Shown here piece by piece: positions 6,169-59,380 of a stretch of 64,000 nucleotides of DNA. Under the pieces are notes generated by a model. The model searched no databases and was not told where the DNA came from. It was given only the letters and a program-made list of their open reading frames with translations. Source of the stretch: Pirellulales bacterium (GTDB lineage Bacteria; Planctomycetota; Planctomycetia; Pirellulales; UBA1268); the NCBI GenBank assembly GCA_018401745.1, contig JAGYJY010000005.1, forward strand, positions 186,001 through 250,000, given 5' to 3'. A program made the translations under genes and the position numbers. Each line of letters begins with the position of its first letter. The first letter of the stretch is position 1.

Positions 6169-6292
6169 CTGTCCGTGGAAAAAGCTCTCCATGGCCTCTT
6201 TCCACTCGAGCAACACCCGAACACGCCGAGGGTTTTCGGGGTTGCCGATCGCCGCAGCCTGCGGCGGCAGACTCTTTCCACAGTCTGCGAGG
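6169..6292 (+). repeat. Dispersed structured repeat, family 1, copy A
   Basis: Diverged copy of an element also found at 41061-41201 and 59207-59380. It starts CTGTCCGTGGAAAAAG directly after the DUF971 stop codon and ends in CAGTCTGCGAGG. Three consecutive hairpins can be drawn: GTGGAAA/TTTCCAC, CCCGAA/TTCGGG, and CGCAGCC around TGCGGCG. The middle stem differs in sequence from copies B and C but still pairs. It fills the gap between the convergent DUF971 and DUF4340 genes and is a candidate bidirectional terminator. Confidence 0.75.
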
Positions 6293-6315
6293 GCCCCCTT
6301 GCCACCCGCTCTGGC

Positions 6316-8294
6316 TCAGTTGCCCGCTGGAGGCAGCGAAAAGCCGGGCGAGTTGGGCAAACCGCCTAGGCCACCATCTGCTGATGCATCACCGGCTGCG
6401 TCCTCGATCACCTCCTCACGGGAGAGATGGATCTTGGCATACTCCTCGCCTGAGACGATGTAGTACCAGGCTGCGAACCGGCCGTTGAGCTCGCGAACCC
6501 GCTTCTTCGCCCCATCGACTTTCTCGTCGTACTCCTCCTGCTTGCGGCGATTCTCCCGCTCCACCCGGCGACGTTCCTCGCGGGCTGCCTGTGCCTTGGC
6601 CTCAGCCTCGTCAGCGGCCTTGAGAGCCTCGGCGGCCGAAGGCGGCGGAGAGGGAGGGGCCTCGTCACCGGCGTCTTCAGCCACTGAAGGTTGTTCCGCG
6701 GCGGGAGCCTCCTCGGCCGCAGCCGACGCGTCGCCATCCGCCTGCGCCGCAAACCGGAAGGGCCCCGCCCGTCGAGCCGAGGCTTCCGGCTCAGTCGCTT
6801 CCGGCTCAGTCGCTTCCGGCTCAGTCGCTTCCGGCTCAGTCGCTTCAGGCTCAGTCGCTTCAGGCTCAGTCGCTCAGGCTCAGTCGCTGCAGGCTCAGTC
6901 GCTGCAGGCTCAGTCGCTTCAGGCTCAGTCGCTGCAGGCTCGCCTGGCAGCGGATCGAGTGTTGGTTTCTCTAACAGCGACTCGTTGAAGCGGGCCATCA
7001 CGAGCAGATACCGCCCCGGCACCTCGTCGCGATCGCCGCCATCGTCGCCAGCAGATTCATCGCCGCGGCGGACGACGCTCGTGCCCGCCCCAAAGCGGAG
7101 CACATACTCCACACCATCCTTCATGCCGACCACGGTCTCGCCGTCGGTTGAAAGGATCTCGCCCGACGCCAACGGAAGGAAGCCTCGCTGCTGCATCGAC
7201 GCCACCGCCTCATCGTCGTCAAGAAACGACGCTTCAGCTTCGAGGTCTGCAGTCAGCCCTGCGGGCTTGCGTGCCACATCGATGATTTTCAGGTCGCCCA
7301 AGGCGTTGCGGAGGTCGTTGAGTTTGGCCGACGCGAGCTGCTCGCCCTCGGCAAGTTCCGCAATCTGCGGGGCCTCCGATGGCTTCTCCGGATCAAACAC
7401 TTCCAGAGACGCAAGCGACCACTCCGCCCCCTGGTCGTCGTACGCAAGACGAATGCGGCTCTTCCGCTGCTGCTCCACCATCATTCGACCGTTCGCCTGC
7501 ACGGCCGCGAGGCCGTAATCGTCAAGCAGCACCGTGCGGACGTCCCACGGCGACAGTTTGAGCAGGTCTTTTTCAATCCAGTCGTCGAACCGCGTGGTGA
7601 ACTTCGAGGTATCGATCTCCACGCGATACACAGGGTCCTGACCAGCCTTCCGCACAAAACGCAGAATTCGCGTTCCGCCAGCAGCACCGGCCGGCTGCCG
7701 ATCTTCCTTGCCGACCACGAGCCGCGCCAACGTCGCCCCGGCCTCGTCACGGATCTCGACGAGCTTTCCTACACCGGTCATACCCGCCTCGATCTTCTGC
7801 GGATCCGGCTCGATCACTCCGAAGGTCTCATGATCGGCAGGCGACGTGCTGACAACGTCGAGCGCCTTCATGTCGATCAGCTCCGTGGCGGCAGCGGCCA
7901 GGTGCTCACGGGCATCGGCTGGATAGTTGTCGTGCGCTGGCAGGACCCACACACCACCCGTCTTGACCACCTTGAACGGCGAGAGTTCCGCCAGGTCTTC
8001 GTTGTAGGAGACGATCTCAAGGCTGCCCGCTTGGGCCACATCCTCAAGCTTGGGGAAGAGCACCTCCTGCATCTCGGCCGTCACCTGCCGCGCCTGGAAG
8101 CGAGGCTGCACAGCCCAGCCGACAATCAGCAGCCCAAAGCCCACAGCCAGATAGATCAGCGTGGTCTTCGCGGCGGAACCCTGCCCGCCGCGCTCGCCCG
8201 CCATCCCACTGTTGTCTATCGCCATCTCTGCCGTCCTCATCCGTAGTGCCGAACCAAGAGACTCATCCCTGCTGCCAGAGGCACCAGCAGCCAC
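6316..8294 (-). CDS. DUF4340 protein of the Gld-like ABC system (frameshifted)
   Basis: Two frames together make a 659-residue protein if one missing base is restored. The N-terminal frame (8294 to about 6880) has one transmembrane helix (TLIYLAVGFGLLIVGWAV) and a DUF4340 domain, a soluble periplasmic region that in other bacteria is encoded next to GldG-like transporters, as here. It then runs into 15-bp repeats encoding TEPEA-type units (about 6781-6940). One unit (6871-6884) has 14 instead of 15 bases. After it the correct frame is the other one, giving AEASARRAGPFRFAAQ, a charged coiled-coil-like stretch (EEALKAADEAEAKAQAA-type) and stop at 6316. The start is a GTG 12 bp after the upstream gene's stop. 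Either a sequencing error or a length-variable repeat explains the break. Confidence 0.75.
6781..6955 (-). repeat. 15-bp tandem repeats inside the DUF4340 gene
   Basis: About eleven units of a 15-bp motif (plus strand GCTTCCGGCTCAGTC or close variants) encode Thr-Glu-Pro-Glu-Ala repeats on the minus strand. Variants at the third to fifth bases (TCC, TCA, GCA) change mainly the codon or one residue. The unit at 6871-6884 is one base short and shifts the frame of the host gene. Confidence 0.85.
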
Positions 8295-8305
8295 TCACAC
8301 GCAGC

Positions 8306-11087
8306 TCACCGCAGCCGCGACTTCGAAACGCCTTCCCGCTCGCGAGCCCGCCGCCGGAAGAACACAAAGAACGCCACGACAAGCGGTGGAATCGGCGGCA
8401 GGAGCACCGCCAGCCACTTCTGCCGATCCTGTTCACGACGCACCGCTGCCCCGAGTCGCCGTTCCACGGCATCCACCTCGGCATCACGCTTCCTCCGCAT
8501 GCCCTCGATCTTCGTCTCGAGCCTCCGCTGGGAAAGTCGCTGCTGGCTAGCAAGCTGCTGCATGGCCGCGACCAGCTCCTGCGAGTCGGCGGTGCCGCTG
8601 CTTTCCATGTCGCGCACCTTCTCCTCGAAGCTGCCGACATCCTCACGCATCTTGGCGTTGGCTTCCCGTTCGGCCTCATCAAACTCGGCGATAAACTTCT
8701 GCCGCTCTTCATCAGCCTGAGCTCGCGCGTCGTCGACGGCAGCCTCGATGCGTTCGAGGGTTCGGTGCACGGGCTTCCGCTTGCGGATCTCGATAAAGCG
8801 GCCGTCGCCGGCAAGTTCATCGAGGATGTTCAGCACAAACGTGACGTTGTCGAAATCGAGCGCGAAAAACTCGTCGGGCCGGTCGCGGAGCCCGAAGATG
8901 CGGCCATCGAGGAGATCGATGTCGGTGACAACAATCGCCTGAATCGGCTTGGCCTTGTCGTCGCCTTCTGCCGATGCCTCCTCTGCCTGCGGCTGGGCCG
9001 CAGCAGCCGCCTGCCCTTCCCGCTGCACGCTCGCTGCGAGCACCATGGCTTCCTGCCCCGGCTGCTCAAAGGCTTGCAGCATGCGAGAGTCGCCCCGGTT
9101 GCCCAGAATCGCCGCGACGTCGATCGTGCCGCTTCGCGTTCCTGTCCGAGCCAGTGGCGAGAAGCTCACGTTCGCCTTCTCTTTGGTGCGGAGACCGCCC
9201 GGAAAGGGAAAGAGCATCTCCTGCAGCCCGGAGGTCACTGCCGATTCCTGATTGAGTGCGGAGACACCGCCTCCCAGCGACTCCAGTGCTTGGTCGACGA
9301 AGACAAACTGGCTGGGAAGCTCGAGCTTGGGATGCGGGTTGTAGTCTTGCCAGACGACAACAGGGCTCGGCCCCGCACCACCAAAGCTGGGCTGCCCGCC
9401 CGAAGTGATCAGTTCCACGCCGAGCGTATTCCAGAGCAGCTCGAGATCGCCCTTCGGCTGCCCCTGCTGCTGCTGAAACATCGCCATCGGACCGCTCGGG
9501 CTGCGCCGCGGCTGGCTCGTGCCCGGCACGCCAACCATCAGCACTGGCAGGGGATCCTCGAAGATCGCCACCGGCTGGCCAGCCTTCACGGCCGTCACGA
9601 AGTTTTCCATTTCGGCCGGCCCGAGCGATGAGGGCTGCACAGCCAGCATCACGTCGTACTGCTCTACGATCGGCGACGAGGGGTCGACCTGCACCACCTC
9701 ATACTGTTTCTCCAGTTCGTCGACGAGCGGCTGCCGCGGCGTCTGCGAGCCGGTCATCATGTCAAAGCCACCAAACAGCTCCGCGTCGGTGGTCACCACC
9801 CCAAGTCGCTTGCGGGTCTGCTCGTTGGCGGTGCAGACCGAACGGATGAGTTCATATTCAACCGGGGTGCCACGATCGAAGAACGGCACAACCACCTTCT
9901 CGAGTCCGCTGGTAAACGCACAGCCGAGAAAAACCTCCTCCTCCCGGTAGGCACCGCGAACCCGGGCGAGCACCGAAACCGGCTCGATGCCAAACTGCTG
10001 CCTGGCCAGCGCCGCCGCTTCGGTCTTGGGATCGGTCGAGATCACTTCGACCTTCACCTTGCCTCCGCCGAGCCGTTGAAACTGCCTGAGCATGTTCAGC
10101 AGGGTCAACCGTGTCTGCGTGTAGTCTTCGGGGACCACCGGGCTCACATAGGCCGTGATCTCCACGGGCCTCTCGGGGTCAAGCTCGGCCAGCAGCCGCC
10201 GCGTGTCCGCAGCGAGCGAACTGATCTGCCCTTCCGAGAGATCCGCCCGCACATCGACCGACCGCACAAGCAAGACCACTCCAAAGCTCGCCGCGATCAG
10301 GGCGACGGTGCGGAGAGCGAAGTGCCCGCCCATCTGGGCACCGTCTTTGCGGCCGGTCCAGTGTCGCCTGCCGATCAGCACCATCGCCACGTACAGGCAG
10401 ACGATCACAATGCCCAAGAAGTAACTCACTGATGAGAGGCTCAGGATGCCCCTCCCAAAGTCGTTGAACTGCTCAGCCATGCTCCACGACCGCACTGTTT
10501 CCGCCCACGACGGGCTCATCACGGTGCCCGCTTGATCTGCCACCACCAGCGGAGCGTTGAGCAGCAGGCCGAGCACAAATCCGACGGTCAGGTTGGCTGG
10601 TGAGAAAACTTGCCACCATGCCGATCGCCAGCATCGCCAGGCCGACAAACCAGTAGCCCAGGTAGTTGGTGAAGAAGAGACCGGCGTCGGGCGTGCCCCA
10701 GCGAAGCAGAATGATCAGGTTGCAGACCATCGAAAACATCAACGCCACGGTAAAGATGCCGACCGCTGCGAGATACTTGCCAAACACCACCTCCTGGTCG
10801 GTGGCGGGGATCGTCAGCAGCAGTTCGTCGGTGCCCTGCCGCCGCTCCTCCGCCCACACGCTCATCGTGATCGCGGGAATGAAGACGAGCATGATGTAGG
10901 GCAGGTAGCGATTGAGCTGGTCGAGGTTGGCCAGGTTGGAGTTGAAAAACTCCGGCGGCCAGAAAGCTGCCAGCGACCCCAAGAGGACAAACACGCAGAT
11001 GAAGACGTAGCCAGTGGGGTTGGAGAAGTAGGCCACGAAATTCCGCTTAAACACGGCGTCGAGCACATGCCACTTCATCGCCATCAT
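8306..11087 (-). CDS. Fused GldF-GldG-like ABC transporter permease/auxiliary protein (frameshifted)
   Basis: With one extra base removed this is a 926-residue fusion. The first part (11087 to about 10600) is an ABC-2 type permease: FKRNFVAYFSNPTGYVF, EERRQGTDELLLTIPATD and several helices, ending GMVASFLTS. The frame then shifts; the other frame continues ANLTVGFVLGLLLNAPLVVAD and further helices, followed by a GldG-like periplasmic domain (VRADLSEGQISSLAADTRRLL, then an ABC_transp_aux region), a coiled-coil-like charged stretch at about residues 790-880 and a final helix. GldF/GldG homologues work with the ATPase encoded upstream and the DUF4340 protein downstream. In Bacteroidetes such proteins support gliding and secretion; in planctomycetes the cargo is unknown. 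The break at about 10600 lies inside the permease domain, not at a domain border. Confidence 0.8.
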
Positions 11088-11155
11088 TCCCTTCGAGTGC
11101 GTAGCAACGGTGAGGGCCCGGAATACCGGCTACCCAGGTTTCCCACAGTGTCGGC

Positions 11156-11872
11156 CTAGGCCGCCGAGCCACGGGTCAGTTCATAAAAACGATCGTCAAG
11201 CGAGCCGCCGCCGGCAAGAAGATCCTGCGGCTTACCGTCAAACACCAGTCGCCCTTCGGCCACCATGATCACCCGATCGGCCAGGGCGTCGACCTCCTGA
11301 AGAATGTGCGTCGAAAGCAGGATCGTCTTCTTTTCGCCCAGCCTGCGGATATTCCCACGAACCTCACGGATCTGGTTGGGATCGAGGCCACTCGTCGGCT
11401 CATCGAGAATCAGCACGTCGGGCTCGTGGAGCAGCACCTGTGCCATCCCGACCCGCTGTCGGTAGCCCTTGGAGAGTTTGTCGATCGCCTTGCCAATCAC
11501 GCTGCCGAGTTCGCATTGTCGAATCACTGCCTCAATCCGCTCTTTCTTGTAGTTGCCGGAGAGGCCGCGAGCATCCGCAAAGAACTCAAGCAGACTTCGT
11601 GGTGTCATGTCGGGATAGAGCGGGCCGTTCTCCGGCAGGTAGCCGAGACGCTTGGCGCCGGCAATGCGATCGGTGGCCATGTCGAAGCCTGCGATGCGAG
11701 CCGTGCCGGCAGACGCAGCCAGGTAGCCGGTGAGCATCTTCATCGTGGTGCTCTTTCCCGCGCCATTGGGCCCCAGAAAGGCCACCACCTGCCCCCGCGG
11801 CACGCGGAACGTCATGTCTTTGACAGCAATGAACGTGCCGTAGTACTTCGTGAGACCATTCGCCTCGATCAT
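11156..11872 (-). CDS. ABC transporter ATP-binding protein, GldA-like
   Basis: A 238-residue ABC ATPase starting at the ATG at 11872 (MIEANGLTKYYGTFIAV). It has a complete Walker A (GPNGAGKST), signature (LSKGYRQRVGMAQ), Walker B ([13 protein letters not shown]) and H-loop (LLSTHILQEVDAL). It belongs to the CcmA/GldA-type group that energises ABC-2 permeases. The permease starts 68 bp downstream and the DUF4340 gene follows, a three-gene operon. The reading frame stays open upstream to 12082, but that part looks like non-coding translation. Confidence 0.88.
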   Translation of the reverse strand: MIEANGLTKYYGTFIAVKDMTFRVPRGQVVAFLGPNGAGKSTTMKMLTGYLAASAGTARIAGFDMATDRIAGAKRLGYLPENGPLYPDMTPRSLLEFFADARGLSGNYKKERIEAVIRQCELGSVIGKAIDKLSKGYRQRVGMAQVLLHEPDVLILDEPTSGLDPNQIREVRGNIRRLGEKKTILLSTHILQEVDALADRVIMVAEGRLVFDGKPQDLLAGGGSLDDRFYELTRGSAA

Positions 11873-12175
11873 CCAGTCGACACCGGAGGTGAAGCCGTCG
11901 GCTCTGTGGCAGTTTCCGCTTTGTGCATCACGCGTCCTCGTGAACCGGCTCCCCAAACTCGTGCACCCACAGCGATACCCCACCGCGGATCCGGCGGGAG
12001 ACGCACCCAGCAAGAATGCCGTCCAGACTTTCCCTGGAGGCCCGCCACCGTCGATCCCCGCAGGAATCCGCAGCCCCGGCAAGGGGCCGCGTGGAATGCC
12101 TCACTAACTTAGGACCGCAGCCACCGGGCTGTCCAGTCCCCAACAGCCAGAGAGCGGGCCGTGTCGAGCCGACGG
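11873..12175. other. Intergenic region upstream of the Gld-like operon
   Basis: About 300 bp between the ATPase start and the nadB stop, both on the minus strand. It should hold the nadB transcript end and the promoter of the Gld-like operon. I see no convincing ORF, tRNA, terminator hairpin with a T-tract, or copy of the dispersed repeats here. Confidence 0.5.
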
Positions 12176-13873
<1,698 letters not shown>

Positions 13874-13877
<4 letters not shown>

Positions 13878-16800
13878 TGCGTGGAGAGTCCTTGGGTGTA
13901 GGCACGCACCCGCTCGAGATACTCACTCGGCGGCCGGCTGCGGGTGCCCTCCGCCTCGCCATCGCGGCCTTGGCGGGTGGCCCTGCGACGGGTTTGCATT
14001 CCCTCGGGCCGCAGGCCCAGGCTTCGCACCGCTCGATCAAACTCGACGCGGTCGGCAGGATTCTCGCTCCGCTGCAGCCGCTGCATCGCATCCCAGCGAT
14101 CCAGAAAGGCCCTGGCCTGTTCTTCGCTCCAGCCGAGCTGCTCCAGAAGGTCTTGATCCCCCGCATCGAGGCTGTCGCGGAGATGGTCTATCGCCAGATC
14201 GGTGGCGTTGCGGGCGTGCTCAAGATCGGCATTGCCCCACTCAAGTTCAGACGGCGTGGCTTCAAGATCCCCGCCTTCCCGCTCCCCTTCACCGTCCGAC
14301 CACGCCCCCTGCCCAGCCATGCCGCGGGTGTCGCCTGAGTCACCGAGGTCGCCTGCCTCCCCCTGCTGCTGATTGCCTCCACCAGCTGCACTCCCCTGCC
14401 GACCCTCGCCCTGCTGACCTTCGCCCTGCTGACCTTCGCCTTGCTGACCTTCGCCTTGCTGACCTTCGCCCTGCTGACCTTCGCCTTGCTGACCTTCGCC
14501 TTGCTGACCTTCGCCTTGCTGACCTTCGCCTTGCTGACCTTCGCCTTGCTGACCTTCGCCTTGCTGACCTTCGCCCTGCTGACCTTCGCCCTGCTGACCT
14601 TCGCCTTGCTGACCTTCGCCTTGCTGACCTTCGCCTTGCTGACCTTCGCCCTGCTGACCTTCGCCTTGCTGACCTTCGCCCTGCTGACCTTCGCCTTGCT
14701 GACCTTCGCCTTGCTGACCTTCGCCTTGCTGACCTTCGCCTTGCTGACCTTCGCCTTGCTGACCTTCGCCTTGCTGACCTTCGCCTTGCTGACCTTCGCC
14801 TTGCTGACCTTCGCCTTGCTGACCTTCGCCTTGCTGACCTTCGCCTTGCTGACCTTCGCCTTGCTGACCTTCGCCTTGCTGACCTTCGCCTTGCTGACCT
14901 TCGCCTTGCTGACCTTCGCCTTGCTGACCTTCGCCTTGCTGACCTTCGCCTTGCTGACCTTCGCCTTGCTGACCTTCGCCTTGCTGACCTTCGCCTTGCT
15001 GACCTTCGCCTTGCTGACCTTCGCCCTGGCCCTGTTCTTCCGCCTGGCGGCGATGCTCGAGGATCCGCTCCATGGCTTCGCCATCTTCAGTGCCGTTGCT
15101 GGCGATGGGCTCTCCGGCCTGTTCACCCGACGCCCCGTCGCGGCCCTCTTCGGCAGCCTGGTCTTGCTGACTCCCTTCGCCAGCCTCGCCGCTTGTGCCA
15201 CGGCCTCGCTGAGGCCCAGGCTCGGTCTCCGGGCCGCCCTGCTGGCCGTCCTGGGCGCCCTGTTCCGCGGCCGAGGGCTGCGACTGTGAGCCTTCGCCGG
15301 AGTCGCCCTGCTGCCCCTGCCCCGACTCTGACGACTGGCCACCGCTCGACTGCTGACCCTGCGATCCGGACTCTTCTCCGCCGGGCTCCTGCTCTTGAGC
15401 GGTCCCCTGGTCAGCTCCGCCGTCTTGCTGGCCGTCTTGCTGGCCGCTGTTCTCCCCAGCCTGCTCACCGGGCTGATCCTCGCCTTGCTGCCCATCGTGG
15501 GGCTGTTCGCCGCCATTCTGCGGCTGCCGGCCGTCCTCCGACTCGCCTTCCGAAGGTTCTTGCTCCTGATCACCCGGCTGCCTCTCCTGAGCAGCCTGCG
15601 GCGGTGGCACAGGCTGCGGCGGTGCCTGGGCATCGATGACGAACTGCGGCCAGGGCTCATCATCCCTGTGCGAAACCCCGCGATTCGGCTTCGGTTCGCG
15701 GTTGTCTTCCACAACGGCCCGATACTCGATGCGGTGCCCGGAGGCCGCCCCGACGTCGGCTGGCGTCAGCATCAGCGTCGCCGACAAGGGCCCGACATGC
15801 TCGACCTCAGGCTGCCAGGCCAAGCCGTCAGCAACAGGCTGATCCCCAGCAAAAACGCGATACTCAAGGCCGACCCTGCGAATCGCAAAGTCGGGATCCC
15901 GTGCGGCCGCCTGAACTCCCACTGGTGCGTCCGGCGGCACCTTCACGGTCTGCTCCACCGGCTTCACGATCCGCACCTCCGGTGGCAGGTCGGCTGTCAC
16001 CTCAATCCGATGCCTGACTTCTTCGGTGAGAATCTCGTCGGAGTCGGCCGACGCCAGCTGCTGCAGGAGCTGATAGCTGTCAAACCAGGGACCGGACCGC
16101 GTCTCATTGAGCCGCAGCGGAAAACTTGCCCTGGCGGTCGCCAAGTCGTGCGGGGGAATCGTGAACTCCCAATCCTGCCTGCCGTCGCATCCAAAATCGA
16201 TCCAGGCCCGTGCAAGCGGCAGGCTCGCCTCCGCAATCAACGTCACCCGCGTTCCCTCAAGCGCTCTGAGATCCCCCTGCCACTGCACGGTCTCCGGGGG
16301 CCGCCGCGTGTAGTCTGGAAACTCATAACGCACCTCACGAACCAGCAACGATGGCACGTCCACCAGCACCACCCGCACCGGCTCAGTCTGCCCATCACCA
16401 GCGAGGATCGCGCACTCGGCAGATCGATCCATGCCGCGGTCGCCACCGGGCAGCACCACCTCGTAGACCTCGCGACGTCCAACGGGCTCGTCACCAGCCG
16501 CAGCAGCAGCGATGTCTTCCTCCGGGCCGGCATCGCCTGCCCGCCGCACCATTGGCAACATCCAGGCCGAGGCCACGTCTGGTCGGCCTGAGTCAGCCAG
16601 CGGCACCACCCGGACCTGCGGCTGCTCCCCGCGACGGCGACCGCGAATCGTGGTGCTGACGATGAGCTGACGGCCACGATGCAGCGTGACCTCTCCACGC
16701 TGAACGCTCAGTGAATGACGCATGCCGTCTGCCGCACGGCCCTCCCGCGGTGGCATTCTCCAGGCAAACTCGGCCGGCTCGATGCGGACCCTGGTCGGCG

Positions 16801-41060: not shown

Positions 41061-41201
41061 GCCACGGCAGGCGGACAGCGAGCCGACTGTGCAAGACGTC
41101 TGCCGCCGCAGGATGCGGCGACCGGCGACCCCCAAAAACCTCGGCTTTTTGGGGCGTCGCTTGAGTGGAAAAAGGCTACGGACGGCTTTTTCCACGGACA
41201 G
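41061..41201 (-). repeat. Dispersed structured repeat, family 1, copy B
   Basis: A 141-bp copy that fills the whole gap between pntB and hemW. Read on the minus strand it begins CTGTCCGTGGAAAAAGCC at the base after the hemW TAA. It contains a 51-bp module (41151-41201) and a 72-bp module (41079-41150) that match copy C closely, plus a degraded remnant of a second 51-bp module (41061-41078). Hairpins: GTGGAAAAAG/CTTTTTCCAC, CCCCAAAAA/TTTTTGGGG and CGCCGCA/TGCGGCG. Likely a two-way terminator or transcription barrier. Confidence 0.85.
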
Positions 41202-42332
41202 TTAGAGCACATCGCCCCAGAGGCTGTCGGACACCAGCAGCCCCTCGCGGGAGAGCTCGAGCCGGCCGTTGTGCTCGGTTGCGAGGCCTGCGGCGATCCA
41301 ACGGTCGATCGCCTCGGCTGCCAGCTGCCGCGGCGTGAAGCCGCAGGCGGCCTGGAAGTCGGCAGCGAGAACCCCGTCTCGTCGCCGCAGCCCCACCACG
41401 AGCCGTTCACGAGCCGCCTCCTCCGCCGACATCGCGTCGACATCACCGGCAGGGTCTTCGGTGGCCAGCAACCGTTTGATCCAGGTGGTGGAGCTGCGGT
41501 GATTGGTCACCCGCGTGCGGCCATCAAAGCGAGCCGCCCCGGGGCCAAAGGCCTCCCACGGCCGAACATCCCAGTAGGCTTCGTTGTGGCGGCAGCGATG
41601 CCCAGGCCGGGCAAAGTTTGACACTTCGTAGTGCTCGTAGCCGGCGGCGGTGAGCCGTTCGATCGCCGCCTCAAACATCGCCCGTTCCAGCGACTCGTCC
41701 ACCGGCAGCAGCAGCCCCCGTTGCCGCTGCGACTCAAAGGCGGTGCCCTTCTCCCAGGTCAGGCAGTAGACCGAGACATGCTCAGGCCCCAGAGCGATCG
41801 CAGCATCGAGATCCTGCTCCACCGCCGCGAGGGTCTGCCCCGGAGCGGCCGTCATCACATCGAGGCTCACCGCAAAGCCTGCCCCGGCGAGCACCGCCGC
41901 TGCCCGCCGCACGTCTTCTGGCGTGTGGTCGCGGTCGAGCGAGCGAAGCGTCGCCGCATCGAGCGACTGGCTGCCGAGGCTCACGCGGGTCACACCACAG
42001 TCGGTGGCCGCCGCAAGCAGCTGCGGCGTCACATCCAGCGGGTTGGCTTCGAGGGTCACTTCGGCAGCGGCAGCCAGCAACAGCCGTTCTCGCAGCATCG
42101 CAAACAGCCGCTGCAGCCGGTCTGGCCCGAGGTGAGAGGGCGTGCCGCCGCCGAGGTAGAGGGTGTCGATCTCGAGCGGCTCCTCAACCCTCCCCAGCTC
42201 GAGGCGGAGGGCCTCGAAATAGCGGTCGATCAGGTCATCGCGGCCCGCCACGAGCGTGAAATCGCAGTAGCCACAGCGGTGGCGACAGAAGGGCACATGC
42301 ACATAGACCGACCGCGGCAGGCTCACAGCCAC
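41202..42332 (-). CDS. hemW: HemW-like radical SAM protein
   Basis: A 376-residue radical SAM protein. YVHVPFCRHRCGYCDF holds the CxxxCxxC cluster motif; LYLGGGTPSHLG, SLGSQSLDAATLRSLDRDH and YEVSNFARPGHRCRHNEAYW are diagnostic of the HemW/HemN-like group. HemW is considered a heme chaperone rather than coproporphyrinogen oxidase. A GTG start overlaps the upstream MBL gene by 10 bp. The stop codon abuts repeat copy B. Confidence 0.88.
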   Translation of the reverse strand: MAVSLPRSVYVHVPFCRHRCGYCDFTLVAGRDDLIDRYFEALRLELGRVEEPLEIDTLYLGGGTPSHLGPDRLQRLFAMLRERLLLAAAAEVTLEANPLDVTPQLLAAATDCGVTRVSLGSQSLDAATLRSLDRDHTPEDVRRAAAVLAGAGFAVSLDVMTAAPGQTLAAVEQDLDAAIALGPEHVSVYCLTWEKGTAFESQRQRGLLLPVDESLERAMFEAAIERLTAAGYEHYEVSNFARPGHRCRHNEAYWDVRPWEAFGPGAARFDGRTRVTNHRSSTTWIKRLLATEDPAGDVDAMSAEEAARERLVVGLRRRDGVLAADFQAACGFTPRQLAAEAIDRWIAAGLATEHNGRLELSREGLLVSDSLWGDVL

Positions 42333-46594: not shown

Positions 46595-47390
46595 GGGGAG
46601 ACCGCGCGCGGGTGGTCCGGCTCGGCAGGCGGCAAAAGTCTCGTCGCTGGCCAGGATAGGCCTTTAGGCTCCTCGAGCGTTCGCCGACCCGCCGAGCCTC
46701 CACTTTTCTGTCAATGAGCGAAGGTTGAGGAGACCGCGCGCGGGTGGTCCGGCTCGGCAGGCGGCAAAAGTCGCGTCGCTGGGCCAGGATAGGCCAAACG
46801 CTCCTCGAGCGTTCGCCGACCCGCCGAGCCTCCCCTTTCTGTCAATGAGCGAAGGGTGAGGAGACCGCGCGGGTGGTCCGAGGACGGGACGGGTCCTGGC
46901 CGCGAAGCGGCCTCGCCGGGCGAGTGCTCGGCCAGACCGCCCGCTGCGCCCCACCCCGCTCAGCCCGTCGCCTCCCTGGCCGCAGGCCGACGCCGAAGGC
47001 GGCGGACAGGCCGGCCTTTAAAAACGTAAGCGGGTCCGGAGGGAACGGGACGGGTCCTCGGGCCGCGAAGCGGCCTCGCCGCAGGCGAGGTGCCTTCGGC
47101 ACCCGAAGACCCGTCCCGCTTGCGCGCCCCACCCCGCTCAGCCCCGTCGCCTCCCCCGGCCGCAGACCGACGCCGAAGGCGGCGGACAGGCCGGCCTTTA
47201 ACCGTAAGCGAAGGGTGAGCCCGGGGCTGACCCGCCGGCGTATAGGAGCGAGCGACGCCCGGAGGGCCAAAGCGAAGCGGATATCCGAGCGAGCGAGGGC
47301 CTGGAGGGCCCGCAGCGAGCGCTCGGCGAATCGGCCCGGGCTCACCCCGAGCGACTCACCTGAACGCTCGGCTCATCGGCCCTGAGCGGC
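46595..47390. repeat. 0.8-kb non-coding field of direct repeats and palindromes
   Basis: Between the converging GT4 and fhcA genes. Section 1: a unit of about 130 bp starting GGAGACCGCGCG and ending GCGAAGGTTGA or GCGAAGGGTGA, at 46597-46729 and 46730-46859, then a truncated third start at 46860. Section 2: a longer unit at about 46884-47042 and 47046-47225, sharing ACGGGACGGGTCCT, CCACCCCGCTCAGCC, and GACGCCGAAGGCGGCGGACA followed by GGCCGGCCTTTAA. Section 3 (47204-47390): several GGGTGAGCC / GGCTCACCC arms of the same kind as the palindrome at 30789. ORFs here are very short or low complexity; I see no gene. Confidence 0.8.
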
Positions 47391-52387: not shown

Positions 52388-52481
52388 AGAGGTGGGTCGT
52401 CTGCGGAGTTTCCTGGATGCTGTGCGGACCGAGTGTAGCACCACACCCTGCCCCCCGCGAGCGGCAGACGTTCAGACAGGA

Positions 52482-53579
52482 TTAGCCGCAGCGGCGGGCG
52501 TGTTCTCGCTCCAGAAAGCGGTCTGTCATGCCCGCGATGTAGTCGGCCACCGTTCGCCTCACGCCGTGATGGCGAGCTCTCACCAGAAACCCTGCCGGCA
52601 TCGCATCGGGGCGTTCCACAAGCCAGGCAAACAGCTGCGAAAGCCGCTCCTGAGCCGGCTCGCGGACCGCCATCACAGCCTCGCTGCGGTAGACCCGTTC
52701 AAAGAGAAAACGCTCAAGTTCCCGCTTCCCCCGAGCGGTCGTCTCGGCGTGGGTCACGAGCGTGCTGGCCGAGAGCACATCGGCGGTCGAGCGAATCGAT
52801 TGCTCCTCAAGGTGCCGCCTCGTCCGCTCAATCAGCTCCACCACCTGCACGTTGACCAGTTCGTGGAGCACCGCCCGCCGCAGCTGATCGGCCTGCAGGT
52901 CGCCGAACCGCTCGAGAACCCGCTCTGACGCCGCCTTCACCAGCGGCAGTTCGAGCAGATTGGCCAGCTGCACCAGGCCAAGCTCGATCGCATCGTCGGC
53001 ATCGTGGGTGTCGTAGGCGATCGAGTCAGCCGCATCGACCACCTGCGCCTCAAGCAGCCGGCCATGCTCATTGGCTTTGTCGCAGCGGCTCATCTGGGCT
53101 CCGAGCACCTCTCGCGAGAGGTTCAGCCCAGGAAAGTCCGGATAGCGGTTTTCCAGGAGTTCCATGATGCGGAGGGCCTGGGCGTTGTGGCTGAAGCCGC
53201 CTTCGTCGGCGAGCAGCGCGTCGAGCGTGTCTTCGCCGGCATGCCCCAGCGGCGGATGGCCGATGTCATGGCCCATCGCAAGCGCTTCCACGAGGTCCTC
53301 GTTGAGAGCCAGGGCTCGGGCCATCGTGCGGGCGATGCTCGTGACCTCGAGGGTGTGGGTCAGCCGGCTGCGGTGGTAGTCGCCGTGGTAGCCGGTAAAG
53401 ACCTGTGTCTTGTGGGCCAGCCGCCGAAAGGCCGCCGCATGCACGATCCGGTCGCGGTCGCGTTGGTACGGGCTGCGATGGAGATGCGGCGGCTCAGGAT
53501 GCACCCGGCCTGCCGAATCGGCGGCATGCATCGCCCAGGGGGCAAGCAGCGTCTCTTCGCGCTTGTGCCAGTCAAGCAT
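52482..53579 (-). CDS. dgt: Deoxyguanosinetriphosphate triphosphohydrolase-like HD protein
   Basis: A 365-residue HD-domain dNTP triphosphohydrolase. The metal-binding histidines and aspartate are in RSRLTHTLEVTSIARTMA and ALAMGHDIGHPPLGHAGED; DRDRIVHAAAFRRLAHKTQV and VVDAADSIAYDTHDADDAI are further family blocks. Such enzymes lower dNTP pools. The start overlaps the HIT gene stop by 8 bp, forming a HIT-dgt pair. Confidence 0.9.
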   Translation of the reverse strand: MLDWHKREETLLAPWAMHAADSAGRVHPEPPHLHRSPYQRDRDRIVHAAAFRRLAHKTQVFTGYHGDYHRSRLTHTLEVTSIARTMARALALNEDLVEALAMGHDIGHPPLGHAGEDTLDALLADEGGFSHNAQALRIMELLENRYPDFPGLNLSREVLGAQMSRCDKANEHGRLLEAQVVDAADSIAYDTHDADDAIELGLVQLANLLELPLVKAASERVLERFGDLQADQLRRAVLHELVNVQVVELIERTRRHLEEQSIRSTADVLSASTLVTHAETTARGKRELERFLFERVYRSEAVMAVREPAQERLSQLFAWLVERPDAMPAGFLVRARHHGVRRTVADYIAGMTDRFLEREHARRCG

Positions 53580-54123
53580 CGGACGACCTCCCTCGCTGTG
53601 CTTCGTCGTGCAGCTGCTCCCAGAGGCTCTCCAGGGCCTGTGGAATCACGCTGGTGCCGGCCACCGCTGGCATGAAGTTCACGTCGCCATCCCAGCGGGG
53701 CAGGAGATGCCAGTGGAGATGGCCGGGCACGCCCGCCCCAGCCACCCTGCCGAGATTCAGCCCGATGTTGAAACCCTGGCAGGCGAGCGAGCTGCGGGTC
53801 AGCCCGCACCACCTGGCCAGGCACTGCTGCAGGTCGAGGAGCTGCTCACTGCTGAGGTCCTCGAGCGTTGCCTGATGATCGAGCGGGGCGATCAGCAGGT
53901 GGCCGCTGGCGTAGGGAAAGCGGTTGACCATGACCAGGCTCACATCGGTTCGCTCCAGCACGCCGAGAACGTGCTCATGGCCCTCTGCCGCAGCAGCCCG
54001 ACAGAGGAAGCAGCCCGTGTCTGCTCCCGGTCGCCAACGCTCGGGCTCCACCGCCTGTTGCTTCGGAGCGTCACCCTTGACGTAGGCCAGCCGCCAGGGC
54101 GCCCAGAGCGTGTCGTGTGTCAT
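53572..54123 (-). CDS. HIT-family hydrolase
   Basis: A 183-residue histidine-triad protein. The HIT motif HLHWHLLPRW is complete, preceded by VMVNRFPYASGHLLIAPLDH and NIGLNLGRVAGAGVPGH. A short Cys pair (CFLC) near residue 38 is typical of the zinc-containing subfamily close to AP4A phosphorylases. It is translated just ahead of dgt. Confidence 0.9.
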   Translation of the reverse strand: MTHDTLWAPWRLAYVKGDAPKQQAVEPERWRPGADTGCFLCRAAAAEGHEHVLGVLERTDVSLVMVNRFPYASGHLLIAPLDHQATLEDLSSEQLLDLQQCLARWCGLTRSSLACQGFNIGLNLGRVAGAGVPGHLHWHLLPRWDGDVNFMPAVAGTSVIPQALESLWEQLHDEAQRGRSSDA

Positions 54124-54246
54124 GCGTGTGAATGCCGAGGAAGGCCGGCGTGGGCAGCCGTTGAAAACGACAACCGCCGTTGCGCAATCGTCGCCCGGCG
54201 TCCAGCGTTCCGTCCAGTCGAGTGCGGCATCCGCGGCCCGCCACGG

Positions 54247-57200
54247 TCAGCGGGCCGGTGGCTGAAACCCGGCGGCGGAGGCATTGATCTGGTCGAGGTC
54301 GAGGTAGCGGGCGTCTTGAATGTCGACGCGGTTGAGCCCTCTCCAGTAGAAGATCTTGCCGGCCGACGCCGTTGAGGTAGGCGCGCCCACGCGTTCCTGG
54401 CGATAGAGCTGGGCGTCGCTGCGGCCGTCTCCCTCAAACACGATCAGGTCTTTCGATTCGCTCCAGCTTAGCCGTGAGCTGCGGCCAGTGAAGGTGTCGC
54501 CCTCCACCAGGATGTTGCCGGTGGCATACATCTCCATGCTGCCCCGTCGCATCCCCGGCAGCGGCGGCGTCTGCCCCACGCCGAGCAGATCGCTCGAGAT
54601 CCGCACCGCCCGTGGCTGCAGGCCACGGGCATCGCGGGGGTCGAGGGTGTCGTCCCAGGAGGCAACCGGCCCGAAGATCGCCTCCACCCGCTGCTGAAAC
54701 TCAAGCACCCGCCGGCCAAGGTTTCCGGAGAGGCCCTTTTGAAAGTCGACTGCGAGGTAGGTCAGCTCATCGGGCTTTGCCTGCGGAGGCGGCGAGGGCT
54801 GCCCGGGTCCGGCGAGCCCAGAGGGCGTCTCAAAGCCAGGTGCCTGGCCAAGCCGCACGTTCTCCAGCCGGCCCGGTCCGTTGCCGAGCACATTGCCAGT
54901 GGTGCGGTCGATCAGCAGGTCACGGACGTAGAGCCGCTCCACCGATCGTGAGCCGTCGGTCGTGCCGCTCACATTGTGGATCTTCACACCGCTGCCGCAG
55001 GCGATGCGGGCCACGTCGGCCTGTCCGCGGCTGCCGCCGGCAGCCATCTGCGAGAAGTCGAAGGGCCGATCGAGCACCACGTCGAGCGAGCCAGCCTCAA
55101 GCCGACCCTCGCCGCTGGAAGTGACGACTCGATCGATGAAGCGGGCCGTGAGGCCGTCGAAGTCCATGCGGCCCTGCCAGGTCACGTCGAGCGGCTCAGC
55201 CGGCCCGTTGGCTGCTGGCGAGGCAACCGCTGGCGTGCTGCCCGTGGCTACGGCCTCAAGCCCCAGCCCACCACCAGCCACCGGCAGCCGCATCCGCCCT
55301 GCTCCGTCGACGGTCATCCGGTTGCGTCCGCGGTCGACTTCAACCAGCGGGCCCTCAAGTTCCATCCCACGGCCGCTGATCTTCGCCGGGCGGCCGGCAA
55401 CGGTCGCCCTAGCATCAAAGCCCGTGGGCCGAACCACCTGCAGCTGATCCCCCTCGATCACCAGCTGCGGCTCGCTCTGGCCGGCAAGCGGCTCCTCGAT
55501 CAGCCGCACGGAGTCTTCCAGCGAAATCTCGGCGACCACAGGCCCCTCTGGCTTCATATCGACCAGGCCCCGCATCAGCGCGCCCGAGGCGACGATGCGG
55601 CCACGATCCGCCGCCTCGGGAGCCTCCACGGCTGGAGCCTCGGGTGGAGGCGGCGGTGGAACAGCCGACGGTGGCGGCGGTGGGGTGGCTGCAGCGGTCG
55701 CGGCCGGTGCTGCTGGCCGCGGAGCCACCACAGGCTTGGGATGCCGAAACCAGATCTCCAGCCGATCGCTGCGGGCAGCCAGCTGCGGCGCGTCAGTCTC
55801 CACGATCCCGCGGGCGAGCATTCGCGTGGGCTTCACACCAGCGAGGCTCACGCCGCCGGCCACGGCCCGTGCAGGCCGCGTCTCGGCGGCCGCCTGATCG
55901 ATCTCGAGCCAGAGGTGCATCTCTGACGCAGCCAGCCGGCCTTGGCTCTCAAAGCTCGCCTGGGCATCGCCAGCCACCGAGGCCACATGGCCATCGCCAT
56001 CCGGCCGCACCCGCAGCCATTTCTTCCAGGCCAGCCGCACCGGCCCGTGCTCCGGCGTGGCTCGCGACTCAAGCCATCCCGGCCCAACGGCCATCAGCGC
56101 GCCTGGTGAGCCAGGAGGGCCGGGCACGTAGTCGACCGAGCGAGCCTCGAGCTCGGCATCCGGGCTCAGCAGCATCACCGGCTGCTCACCGTCGAGCAGG
56201 ATCCGCTTGGTGGCAATCTCATAGCCGAGCCGCTCCGCCCGAGCTTCCAGCCCGCCTTCGCTGCTCCGCGCGACCACCGGGCTGCCCCGCGCCTCAAGTT
56301 CCACCGGCCTGAGGCTGCCGGTGTCGGGGCCGTCGGCATCAGCCGCGGCTGCCTCATCGGCCAGCAGGATTGAGAGCCTGTCGGCCACCAGCTGCTCGAT
56401 GCCCCCGTCGGGCAGCGTTCGCGACACATCGACATGATCGGTGAGCGTGATCAAACGGCTCACCACGCCAAAGTCAAGGCTGCCGCGGCAACGCACCAGC
56501 ACGGGCGGCGTGGGGCCGTCGGCCTCCGCGGTTGCCTCGCTGCCAGGCAGGAAGCCACCGGCCATCCCCTCCAGGAGAATCTGCACGTCCCGCTCGAGTC
56601 GCATCGACTCCACGCCGTTGATCGCCGGTCCGCGGTCGCTGCTCTCACCAGGCTTCGATAGCAGCCGCGCCACGAACCCCCGGCCACTGCCGCGGCTGCG
56701 ACCGTAGCGAAACTGCACCGCCTCGATCGTCTGCAGCCGGTTCTCGGCCAGCTCAAGATCGCGGGTGTTGATCTCAATCTCATCTTCACCACCGGGCGTC
56801 GTGGCCGTTCCGCGAACGCTCACCTCACCGCGGAGATTGCCCCCAATCAGCTTGCTGAGACGGCCCTGGGCTGGGTCGATCGGCTCCTCAAACTCGAGCA
56901 CCGCCCCCTGCGGTGCTCGCATCACCACCGTGCGGCCCTTGGGCTGACCATCCGGCGACGGCTCTGGCAGCATCACGAGCGTGCAGGGCACGAGGTTCAT
57001 CCGGCCATCGGGCAGGGTGTGATACTCCTTAAACAGCAGCCGCATGCTGTTGCTCTCAAGCACCGTGGGATCGTCGCGTTCCCAGGAGCCCTCTGGAAAG
57101 ATGTCGCCCAGGCTCGCCAGTCGGCTCGCCGCCCGCGCCCGAATCGCTGCAGCTTCCTCTGCCGTCGGCTCGAGCACCGCCTGCTCATCGGCCGACCGTT

Positions 57201-57291
57201 CGATCAAGGGGACCATTGTCAGCCGGTAGAAGCCGGTGGCCGCCAGGGCGATCAGGAACACACGGAGCGTTCGTCCGAGCCTGTGTTCCAT
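54247..57291 (-). CDS. Large LptC/LptA-like envelope protein
   Basis: A 1014-residue protein with one N-terminal helix (LRVFLIALAATGFYRLTMVP) and many beta-rich segments. The C-terminal part has an OstA/LptA-like stretch (MYATGNILVEGDTFTGRSS, SWSESKDLIVFEGDGRSDA), and the repeating pattern of ...ARGIVETDAPQL / ...VAEISLEDSVRLI elsewhere suggests repeated LptA-type folds. A Pro-rich linker (ATPPPPPSAVPPPPPPEAP) splits it. Upstream kdsC and the kdsD-like gene make an LPS-transport role likely. It is far larger than E. coli LptA or LptC, so it may combine both. Assignment is by pattern and context. Confidence 0.6.
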   Translation of the reverse strand: MEHRLGRTLRVFLIALAATGFYRLTMVPLIERSADEQAVLEPTAEEAAAIRARAASRLASLGDIFPEGSWERDDPTVLESNSMRLLFKEYHTLPDGRMNLVPCTLVMLPEPSPDGQPKGRTVVMRAPQGAVLEFEEPIDPAQGRLSKLIGGNLRGEVSVRGTATTPGGEDEIEINTRDLELAENRLQTIEAVQFRYGRSRGSGRGFVARLLSKPGESSDRGPAINGVESMRLERDVQILLEGMAGGFLPGSEATAEADGPTPPVLVRCRGSLDFGVVSRLITLTDHVDVSRTLPDGGIEQLVADRLSILLADEAAAADADGPDTGSLRPVELEARGSPVVARSSEGGLEARAERLGYEIATKRILLDGEQPVMLLSPDAELEARSVDYVPGPPGSPGALMAVGPGWLESRATPEHGPVRLAWKKWLRVRPDGDGHVASVAGDAQASFESQGRLAASEMHLWLEIDQAAAETRPARAVAGGVSLAGVKPTRMLARGIVETDAPQLAARSDRLEIWFRHPKPVVAPRPAAPAATAAATPPPPPSAVPPPPPPEAPAVEAPEAADRGRIVASGALMRGLVDMKPEGPVVAEISLEDSVRLIEEPLAGQSEPQLVIEGDQLQVVRPTGFDARATVAGRPAKISGRGMELEGPLVEVDRGRNRMTVDGAGRMRLPVAGGGLGLEAVATGSTPAVASPAANGPAEPLDVTWQGRMDFDGLTARFIDRVVTSSGEGRLEAGSLDVVLDRPFDFSQMAAGGSRGQADVARIACGSGVKIHNVSGTTDGSRSVERLYVRDLLIDRTTGNVLGNGPGRLENVRLGQAPGFETPSGLAGPGQPSPPPQAKPDELTYLAVDFQKGLSGNLGRRVLEFQQRVEAIFGPVASWDDTLDPRDARGLQPRAVRISSDLLGVGQTPPLPGMRRGSMEMYATGNILVEGDTFTGRSSRLSWSESKDLIVFEGDGRSDAQLYRQERVGAPTSTASAGKIFYWRGLNRVDIQDARYLDLDQINASAAGFQPPAR

Positions 57292-57339
57292 GGTGGCCGT
57301 TCCTGCCTGCCTCGAGGATGCGATTCGCTCAACGACGCC

Positions 57340-57915
57340 CTACGACGCCTGGCCCGAGTGGTAGCGGCGGACGGCAGCCTCCCAGACACCGCGGGCTTCG
57401 AGGATCCGCTCGATCACCTCACGGACTGCCCCGCGGCCGCCGCCAGCGATCGTCACGATGTCGGCCGCCTCGCGGAGTTCGCGACAGGCGTCCGCCACCG
57501 CAACTCCCACACCGCAGGCCACGACACAGGCGAGATCCGGCAGGTCATCGCCAAGAAACGCCGCCTCATTCCAGCCGAGGCCATGCTCAGCAAGGATCGC
57601 CTCAACCGCTGCCCGCTTGTCGCTCACGCCCTGCCGGACAATGCCGATGCCCAGCTCGCCGGCCCGCACGGCAACCACATGGCTCGACCGTCCTGTGACA
57701 ATCCCTGTCAGCCCGCCACTCTTTGCCCAGAGTTTGATACCGAGGCCGTCGCGGATATGAAACGCTTTCTGCTCAATGCCGTTGTTGTCCCAGGTGACCA
57801 TGCCGTCGGTGAGCACACCGTCGACATCAAGCAGCAGGAGGCGAATCACACGCAGGCGGTCTTCCAGATCAGCTGCCTCGGGCGGCTCGTTCATCGCGGC
57901 GGGCTCTTGGGGCAT
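57340..57915 (-). CDS. kdsC: 3-deoxy-D-manno-octulosonate 8-phosphate phosphatase (HAD)
   Basis: A 191-residue HAD phosphatase that removes phosphate from Kdo-8-P on the way to LPS. LLLLDVDGVLTDGMV is the nucleophile motif, GIVTGRSSHVVAVRA motif II, and AAFLGDDLPDLACV motif IV with the KdsC-specific pattern. Normal length, no cap domain. It lies between the kdsD-like gene upstream and the LptA-like gene downstream, all on the minus strand. Confidence 0.9.
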   Translation of the reverse strand: MPQEPAAMNEPPEAADLEDRLRVIRLLLLDVDGVLTDGMVTWDNNGIEQKAFHIRDGLGIKLWAKSGGLTGIVTGRSSHVVAVRAGELGIGIVRQGVSDKRAAVEAILAEHGLGWNEAAFLGDDLPDLACVVACGVGVAVADACRELREAADIVTIAGGGRGAVREVIERILEARGVWEAAVRRYHSGQAS

Positions 57916-57957
57916 CGTGGGCAGTTCTGTCAGCCGACGTTCGGCAGGTAGGTGATC

Positions 57958-59040
57958 TCAGGCAGCGCGACGAGGGGCTGCGGGAGCCAGGCTTTCCGGC
58001 AGCAGCTCCGGCGGCACGAGCCCCACAAGGTCCACGATGTCGAGCAGGCCGGCCAGCCGGCCAGCGGCATCGATCACGGGCAGTTCACTCAGCCGATGCT
58101 GCTCAAGCAGGGCCACCGCATCAGCAAGTCGCAGCCCCGCTGGGACCGTCCGCGGCCGGTGGGTCATCACCATCTCGATCGGAGCATCGAGGGCAGCGTC
58201 GTTGCGGCGTTCGAAGAGCCGGGCAAGGTCGCTGTCGGTGAAGATGCCCGCCAGGCTGCCCGCATCATCGAGAATCATCACCGCGCCGGTGCGTCGGGCT
58301 GGCAGCGTGCGGCCAAACACCTCTCGCACGGTCTCATGCGGCCGGGCGGTGCGGCAGGCTGCCAAGGGCTGCATCACCTCATCCACCGTGGCCAGCGTGC
58401 GGCCCAGGCTGCCACCGGGATGCCGCCGGGCAAAGTCGTCATGGGTGAAGGCCCGCAGTTCGCAGGCCACCAGGGCCAGGGCATCGCCCAGGCCGAGCAT
58501 CACGGCTGTGCTCGTGCTCGGAGCAAGACCGAGCCGGCAGGCCTCCTGCAGCCGGCCGCTCGACACCACCACGCGAGCAGCGCGGCCAAGCGTGCTCTCA
58601 GGGTTTCCGGTGATGGCCACGATCGGCACATCGCGGGCGGCCACATGCGGCAGCAGGCGGGTGATCTCCTCGCTTTCCCCTGAGTGCGAGAGAGCAAGCA
58701 TCAGGTCGTCGCCGCGGAGGACACCAAGGTCGCCGTGCAACGCCTCGGCAGGATGCAGAAAGTGGGCAGGCGAGCCCGTCGAGGCAAGCGTGGCGGTGAT
58801 CTTGCGGGCCACAAGCCCGGCCTTGCCAATGCCAGTGACCACGACGCAGCCGGAGCAGGTGTGAATCAACCGCACCGCCTCGCAGAAGCTGCTGCTGAGA
58901 CTCTCGGCAGCAGCCAGCACCGCCCGCCCTTCGGCCTCGAGCACGGCACGGCCACGCTCCAGCACAGCCTGATCGCCGACGTCCTGCTCCACCCAGCTTC
59001 TCACTCGCGTTTGCCCGTGCTCGTGCATCGGCCCATCCAT
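57958..59040 (-). CDS. kdsD: KpsF/GutQ-type arabinose-5-phosphate isomerase
   Basis: A 360-residue SIS-CBS protein that supplies arabinose-5-phosphate for Kdo. SIS domain: VVVTGIGKAGLVARKITATL, FLHPAEALHGDLGVLRGDD and LALSHSGESEEITRLLPH; DDFARRHPGGSLGR is the family signature. Two CBS domains follow (VMQPLAACRTARPHETVREV; VMTHRPRTVPAGLRLADAV). The ATG at 59040 (MDGPMHEHGQ) is used; the open frame further upstream runs through the repeat at 59207 and is not coding. kdsC follows 42 bp later. Confidence 0.9.
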   Translation of the reverse strand: MDGPMHEHGQTRVRSWVEQDVGDQAVLERGRAVLEAEGRAVLAAAESLSSSFCEAVRLIHTCSGCVVVTGIGKAGLVARKITATLASTGSPAHFLHPAEALHGDLGVLRGDDLMLALSHSGESEEITRLLPHVAARDVPIVAITGNPESTLGRAARVVVSSGRLQEACRLGLAPSTSTAVMLGLGDALALVACELRAFTHDDFARRHPGGSLGRTLATVDEVMQPLAACRTARPHETVREVFGRTLPARRTGAVMILDDAGSLAGIFTDSDLARLFERRNDAALDAPIEMVMTHRPRTVPAGLRLADAVALLEQHRLSELPVIDAAGRLAGLLDIVDLVGLVPPELLPESLAPAAPRRAA

Positions 59041-59206
59041 CGGTGTGATCCGCTTCCGCTCTCCATGCGCAGCATGCCCCGCAGCCCGACCACGGGACGG
59101 GGGACGATAGGCCGTCCAGGAAGGCCATGCAACGCGAGTTTGCCACTCGCTGCCGACAGAAAAGCCTGCCAGGGCCTGTTCCACATCGGGGCACGCTCCC
59201 AGCATT

Positions 59207-59380
59207 GGGGCGTCGCTTGAGTGGAAAAAGGCCACGGATGGCTTTTTCCACGGACAGCCAGCAGACTGTGGAACATGTCTGCCGCCGCAGGATGCGGTGA
59301 CCGGCGACCCCCAAAAACCTCGGCTTTTTGGGGCGTCGCTTGAGTGGAAAAAGGCCATGGATGGCTTTTTCCACGGACAG
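59207..59380 (-). repeat. Dispersed structured repeat, family 1, copy C (duplicated module)
   Basis: 174 bp organised as a 51-bp module (59207-59257), a 72-bp middle (59258-59329) and a second 51-bp module (59330-59380). The two 51-bp modules differ at one base. Read on the minus strand the element starts at the base after the TAG of the acyl-CoA synthetase gene. Each 51-bp module holds the GTGGAAAAAG/CTTTTTCCAC hairpin; the middle holds the GC-rich hairpin and most of the CCCCAAAAA/TTTTTGGGG hairpin. Confidence 0.9.

What the first reader, a model, noticed from the sequence alone, without database searches (positions are those of the whole stretch)
6169..59380. A structured repeat that starts at the base right after the stop codon in all three copies
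Copies at 6169-6292, 41061-41201 and 59207-59380 begin CTGTCCGTGG with zero spacing from the stop codon of the gene they follow: TAA of the DUF971 gene, TAA of hemW, TAG of the acyltransferase-ligase gene. The host genes are unrelated, so the position is not inherited from gene duplication. The shared junction is CTA(A/G)CTGTCC. One model is a mobile or MITE-like element that inserts at CTA/TAR stop sites or brings its own stop codon; another is a 3'-UTR regulatory element. I do not know this element from any described family.
Basis: seen in the sequence. Interest (0 to 1): 0.78.

Follow-up and report, generated by a model that had tools for sequence, protein, structure and literature searches.

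The report
Tiny transposon seated on stop codons
The repeat is a roughly 119-base transposon without genes, found in freshwater planctomycete bacteria; it duplicates the four letters it lands on, usually CTAG, which are rare except where genes end in the stop codon TAG, so about half of its copies sit flush against a stop codon and leave the gene intact.

Summary
The repeat is a miniature transposon (MITE) of one planctomycete family: 54 main-family matches in this MAG; hits in 60 of 72 genomes of its family and 0 of 44 from other families of the search. It inserts at CTAG-like tetranucleotides and duplicates them. Outer bases of the left and right tetranucleotides are correlated over 133 copies, and 13 of 18 related elements from an order-wide search have identical flanking 4-mers. 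A likely parent is an IS1182-like DDE insertion sequence found in relatives (complete copies of 1485 and 1491 bp, CTAG on both sides, one end 16/18 like the MITE end), but not in the 4 genomes of this genus. A stop codon abuts an end in 67 of 133 copies. Relatives lacking the element stop at the same codon in 8 of 14 comparisons and within 4 codons in 13, so the stop belongs to the gene. CTAG scarcity explains much, yet stop seats exceed available safe CTAG sites (31/54 against 16/71), and the left end faces the stop more often than the right (46 against 17). Both excesses stay unexplained; a terminator test gave no support.

The parts
6169..6287 (+). MITE copy 1, CTGTCC...CAGTCTG
   Evidence: CM match G000:C4:192165-192291 includes the flanking 4-mers
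6165..6168 (+). left target 4-mer CTAA; its last three bases are the stop codon of the DUF971-like gene
6288..6291 (+). right target 4-mer, now CGAG (diverged from the left copy)
5827..6168 (+). host gene, GBBH-like_N (PF06155), 113 aa
41083..41201 (-). MITE copy 2
   Evidence: G000:C4:227079-227205
41202..41205 (-). left target 4-mer CTAA holding the TAA stop of the hemW-like gene
41079..41082 (-). right target 4-mer, CTCG
41202..42332 (-). host gene, Radical_SAM + HemN_C (hemW-like), 376 aa
59262..59380 (-). MITE copy 3
   Evidence: G000:C4:245258-245384
59381..59384 (-). left target 4-mer CTAG holding the TAG stop of the acyltransferase-ligase gene
59258..59261 (-). right target 4-mer CTGG, shared with the start of the partial copy
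59205..59257 (-). partial tandem copy, left half only
59381..62056 (-). host gene, Acyltransferase + PP-binding + AMP-binding, 891 aa
59340..59374 (-). hairpin 1 of copy 3 (GTGGAAAAAGCC...GGCCTTTTTCCAC), terminator-like

Best explanation
The repeat is a non-autonomous DNA transposon (MITE) of about 119 bp with imperfect terminal inverted repeats (CTGTCCGTGGAAAAAG / CAGACTGTGGAACAAG, 12 of 16 alike) and four internal hairpins. It is most likely moved by an IS1182-like DDE transposase, which joins it into a CTAG-like tetranucleotide (YTAR, mostly CTAG) and duplicates that tetranucleotide (inferred from shared ends and shared target; transposition itself is not shown). In this GC-rich genome CTAG is about ten times rarer than base composition predicts, and a good part of the CTAG sites that can take an insertion without changing a protein are the last four bases of genes ending ...C-TAG. 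Insertion there leaves a complete stop codon in the left or the right copy of the duplicated target, so the protein is unchanged and the element starts at the base after the stop. Shown: the target duplication, the insertion polymorphism, unchanged stop positions, and a parent-like IS in relatives. Inferred: the transposase that moved these copies. Not explained: the further 2.5-fold excess at stops and the bias for the left end to face the stop.
For: Correlation between flanks over 133 independent copies: left base -1 with right base +2, 95 identical against 72.4 expected, z 5.2; left -4 with right -1, 114 against 108.9, z 3.1. 13 of 18 related elements picked from the loci of an order-wide pattern search have identical 4-mers on both sides, among them CTAA/CTAA, TTAG/TTAG, ATAA/ATAA and GTAG/GTAG. 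Comparison with G001 (same genus; about 93% identical in one compared 3-kb locus): at least 11 insertions shared and others absent; by my reading 5 of 9 element-free junctions show a single tetranucleotide. Stop position unchanged: G001 5 of 6 element-free junctions, the sixth one codon away; more distant G020 3 of 8 exact. Complete IS1182-like elements L317 (1485 bp) and L325 (1491 bp, intact 453-aa transposase) both lie between CTAG and CTAG, and the L325 left end matches the MITE right end at 16 of 18. CTAG 156 observed against 1498 expected in 464 kb. Left-junction stops over 133 copies: 36 TAG, 10 TAA, 5 TGA; own genome 18 TAG, 6 TAA, 0 TGA, while its called genes use 257 TGA, 74 TAG, 53 TAA.
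Against: The middle two bases of the duplicated 4-mer show no left-right correlation (75 identical against 71.5 expected, and 79 against 82.3); I read this as a nearly fixed TA at insertion followed by independent decay. The IS transposase was found in 19 of 72 family genomes, many as fragments, and in 0 of 4 genomes of this genus, while PF01609 and PF13546 gave nothing in those four genomes. The other end comparisons reach only 12 to 14 of 18. Four of nine element-free junctions are not clean: two are unclear, and two (C9:32347, C9:73482) look like two tetranucleotides without an element. Stop seats exceed the safe CTAG background (own genome 31/54 against 16/71, p 9e-5; deduplicated 19/31, p 2.5e-4, falling to p 0.07 with the strictest ORF rule), so target scarcity alone is not the whole story.
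Confidence: 0.85

Rival explanations
1. REP/REPIN-like element moved by a Y1 (HUH, RAYT) transposase, whose tagged end provides the TAG stop.
For: Hairpin-rich short repeat with TAG at its ends; [quoted passage not shown] baltica. The own genome has two Y1_Tnp matches.
Against: HUH single-strand transposition makes no target duplication (established knowledge), whereas flanks here are duplicated. Y1_Tnp had no match in the three congeners G001-G003, which carry the repeat. The region of the two own Y1 genes (L145) has no element match at E <= 1e-4. The stop is mostly gene-derived.
Confidence: 0.05
2. Selected 3'-end RNA element: copies are kept at stop codons because hairpin 1 (A-tract, GCC-GGC stem, T-tract) acts as an intrinsic terminator or mRNA-stabilising end.
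For: Excess at stops over safe CTAG sites; left end faces the stop more often (46 left-only against 17 right-only, p 3e-4; 33 against 14, p 0.008, where the right end is intact). Helix covariation above shuffled and slid controls (0.146 against 0.078 and at most 0.077). Terminator-like calls in copies 3 and 4 (2 found, 0.6 expected).
Against: Hairpin-1 energy and T-run length do not differ between left-at-stop copies and copies away from stops (p 0.27 and 0.82). No terminator-like call in the region of copy 2 (0 found, 0.5 expected; copy 1 was not scanned). Covariation may reflect lineages of active elements rather than host function. No Rfam family matched the window at gathering scores.
Confidence: 0.15
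3. The element truncates genes and supplies a new stop.
For: The left flank reads CTAG in most copies, and one own gene (C7:17180) has a longer-looking relative in G020 (my reading).
Against: In 13 of 14 comparisons the relative without the element stops within 4 codons of the same place.
Confidence: 0.03

Closest known systems
MITEs derived from insertion sequences (general class)
   Same: Short, no ORF, inverted ends, duplicated 4-base target, many copies, internal-deletion derivatives (L040, L053, L054), larger IS with the same ends in relatives.
   Different: Only about 18 terminal bases resemble the IS; the interior is four hairpins. About half of the copies lie exactly at stop codons.
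IS1182-like insertion sequence of the same planctomycete family (L317, L325)
   Same: Ends C-A-G-n-C-Y-GTGG-nnn-AAG and CTAG on both sides.
   Different: 1.5 kb with a transposase; 2 of 18 of its ends lie at stops against 71 of 266 MITE ends (p 0.17, not significant).
IS5 target choice
   Same: PMC5493358 (passages seen): IS5 duplicates Py-T-A-Pu, mostly CTAG, an under-represented tetranucleotide.
   Different: The transposase here scores best on the IS1182 model, not on the IS5 models.
GTAG-tagged REPs (PMC3733652, passages seen)
   Same: Repeat ends supply or adjoin TAG stops of flanking ORFs; planctomycete members reported.
   Different: 20-40 bp, tagged at one end and linked to tyrosine (HUH) transposases; this element has a target duplication and DDE-type relatives.

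Membership tests
MITE | no transposase gene, about 50-600 bp | tested here: met
   about 119 bp, far too short for a transposase
MITE | terminal inverted repeats | tested here: met
   imperfect, 12 of 16 between consensus ends (read)
MITE | target site duplication | tested here: met
   outer bases correlated in 133 copies; 13 of 18 order-wide elements with identical 4-mers; the middle bases show no correlation
MITE | autonomous element with the same ends | tested here: met
   in family relatives only; 0 of 4 genomes of the genus
MITE | movement | tested here: inconclusive
   insertion polymorphism between G000 and G001; no direct transposition test
IS1182 family (proposed mobiliser) | transposase over the NCBIfam IS1182 cut-off | tested here: not met
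   best model is IS1182, 193 and 182 bits for two full-length proteins, below the cut-off of 270; hence 'IS1182-like'
IS5 family | transposase over an NCBIfam IS5 cut-off | tested here: not met
   best IS5 model 101 bits against a cut-off of 140
REP/REPIN with RAYT | repeat flanks a Y1 transposase gene | tested here: not met
   no element match in L145, which holds both own Y1 genes
REP/REPIN with RAYT | no target duplication | tested here: not met
Rfam RNA families | match at gathering score | tested here: not met
   0 matches in the window

The most novel reading that the evidence does not exclude
In this planctomycete family stop codons are the actual niche of the element: copies are either directed to, or retained at, translation ends in a preferred orientation, so that a transposon serves as a ready-made 3' end (bidirectional terminator or mRNA end) delivered at zero distance from the stop codon without changing the protein.
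Probability: 0.2. Interest if true: 0.7.

Novelty: new member of a known kind. Interest (0 to 1): 0.45.

Why it matters
It gives a simple, testable reason why a mobile repeat can adjoin stop codons exactly: a CTAG target that is rare elsewhere, plus a duplication that leaves a whole stop codon. That rule may account for other repeats reported at TAG stops. The further excess at stops and the orientation bias would, if real, point to selection for transposon-borne gene ends.

Tried and rejected
Rfam search of the window gave nothing. The RNAalifold consensus of A1 was poor; I named four local hairpins from the sequence of copy L002 instead, which leans toward that structure. Two conserved-domain searches for DDE transposases, PF01609 and PF13546, gave no match in the four genomes of the genus; the parent-like IS came from loci in other genera. 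A TA duplication (IS630-like) was considered and dropped because bases outside TA correlate. Gene truncation was dropped. Terminator selection was tested and not supported. A viral contigs pattern search found no match. Paper searches; I saw listings, and passages of PMC3733652 and PMC5493358 only; none of the listed titles or abstracts describes this element, but no full text was read, and a claim that it is unpublished would rest only on those searches.

Rows dropped before counting: of 109 and 20 CM matches I left out by hand partial, low-scoring and duplicate-contig matches, which with 43 own copies gave 158; 154 remained after removing identical flanks and 133 after removing copies with similar or too short flanks. 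Gene calls for the background are my own ORF rules, not a gene finder.

Full report
Observation. Three copies of a roughly 119-base repeat lie at 6169-6287 (+), 41083-41201 (-) and 59262-59380 (-), each starting at the base after a stop codon; a left-half tandem copy lies at 59205-59257. The host genes are a GBBH-like_N gene, a hemW-like gene and an acyltransferase/AMP-ligase gene.

Copy number and range. The window belongs to a 2.88-Mb MAG (28 contigs, 74% complete). A covariance model built from 52 copies gives 96 matches at E <= 1 in that genome. Of the 75 with E below 1e-4, 54 are this family and 21 a second, related-looking family. Of 116 relatives searched with one copy, 60 match: 60 of the 72 of the same family and 0 of 44 others. 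An exact pattern found 13 stretches in named genomes, all titled as planctomycete MAGs, four of them labelled Candidatus Kuenenia stuttgartiensis. A similar pattern found none in viral contigs. That the group is a freshwater lineage of Pirellulales is my guess; no call shows it.

Anatomy. The consensus reads CTAG | CTGTCCGTGGAAAAAGCC ATCCAT GGCCTTTTTCCAC ... second hairpin ... CGCCGCATCCTGCGGCG GCAGAC..TTCCACA GTCTG | CTAG. Four local helices hold 89.2% standard pairs over 49 distinct copies; covariation is 0.146 against 0.078 in shuffles and at most 0.077 when slid. The structure was named from one copy, which favours it on the share of pairs. Several own copies lack internal parts but keep both ends (L040, L053, L054), as expected for a mobile element.

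Target duplication. In 154 copies the left flank reads C 139, T 131, A 112, G 112 and the right flank C 139, T 111, A 109, G 106. In 133 independent copies the outermost bases agree between the sides more often than expected (z 5.2 and 3.1); the middle two do not. An order-wide pattern search for a related end (TARCAGTCCGTTGAAAA, one mismatch) rings in 31 of 146 genomes, with the reversed control at 0 or 1 per strand in the rows shown. Of 18 two-ended elements that I picked from its loci (16 short, two of about 1.5 kb), 13 carry identical 4-mers on both sides, including CTAA, TTAG, ATAA and GTAG pairs. This is a 4-base target duplication, mainly CTAG.

Parent-like element. PF01609 and PF13546 find nothing in the four genomes of the genus. 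Three PF01609 loci of other genera of the family had ends like the MITE next to CTAG or TTAG. Their protein matches in 19 of 72 family genomes, often as fragments, and in none of the genus. Two copies are complete: L317, 1485 bp, whose transposase frame contains one stop codon, and L325, 1491 bp, with an intact 453-aa ORF. Both are flanked by CTAG on both sides. The left end of L325 matches the MITE right end at 16 of 18; the other seven end comparisons give 12 to 14. The best NCBIfam model is IS1182, but below its cut-off (193 and 182 bits against 270). Two relatives from other families have transposases 48% identical to it in elements with the related ends.

Empty sites and stops. G001, a congener 93% identical in one compared locus, shares at least 11 insertions and lacks others. 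By my reading of nine element-free junctions, five show a single tetranucleotide, two are unclear, and two look like two tetranucleotides without an element, perhaps excision footprints. Where a gene stop abuts the element, element-free G001 loci stop at the same codon in 5 of 6 cases (the sixth is one codon away). In the more distant G020 it is 3 of 8, with four within 4 codons and one weak homologue without a stop there. The genes end where they always ended.

How special are stops? With one rule (ORF of at least 100 codons, coding-like composition) 67 of 133 copies have a stop exactly at an end, and the left end shows 50 at offset zero against a mean of 0.24 at other offsets. CTAG is about ten times under-represented (156 against 1498 in 464 kb). 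Outside coding interiors, 16 of 71 CTAG sites are stops by the same rule. Own copies exceed this: 19 of 31 after removing copies with relatives in the set (p 2.5e-4), and 31 of 54 without that removal (p 9e-5). With the strictest rule p is 0.07. The parent-like IS has 2 of 18 ends at stops against 71 of 266 MITE ends, p 0.17, so the IS does not settle whether stops are preferred. Left-only stops outnumber right-only stops, 46 to 17 (p 3e-4), and 33 to 14 where the right end is intact (p 0.008). A terminator role could explain this, but hairpin-1 energy and T-run length are no better in stop-seated copies (p 0.27 and 0.82). The pattern scan calls terminators in copies 3 and 4 but not in the region of copy 2 (copy 1 not scanned).

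Verdict. A new MITE family of a known kind, with a clear reason for its zero spacing. Precedents seen in print: IS5 duplicates CTAG-like targets (PMC5493358, passages), and GTAG REPs often provide TAG stops (PMC3733652, passages). What remains open is why stops are over-used beyond CTAG availability and why one end is favoured.

Noticed in passing
own genome, e.g. L128 (G000:C14:50913-51260), 21 of 75 CM matches: A second structured repeat family (CGGACTCGCTTCACGCCTGCGAAGCCATCCTGGCCTTC...), partly in tandem at about 112-bp spacing, recognised weakly by the model of the first family.
   Followed up: no
window 46597-47201: Tandem units of about 132 bp (46597-46871) and two 48-bp repeats 180 bp apart (46974-47021, 47154-47201) whose GCGGACAGGCCGGCCTT core resembles the end of the second repeat family.
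   Followed up: partly
window 14214-15000 and 6755-6971: Long arrays of 15-bp units; the second reads as SGSVA-type repeats in one frame.
   Followed up: no
L178 (G001), orthologue of own G000:C14:41246: At the same stop codon the relative carries a diverged element that begins with a right-end-like sequence (TAG|CAGACAG...), so one stop may have been used twice.
   Followed up: partly
L182 and L179 (G001): Element-free sites that look like two target 4-mers side by side, possible precise excision footprints.
   Followed up: no
loci of the order-wide search (L327-L356): Many short elements (62-169 bp) and IS of about 1.5 kb with TAR|CAGYCCGTTGAAAA ends; pattern matches in 31 of 146 genomes of the order.
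   Followed up: partly
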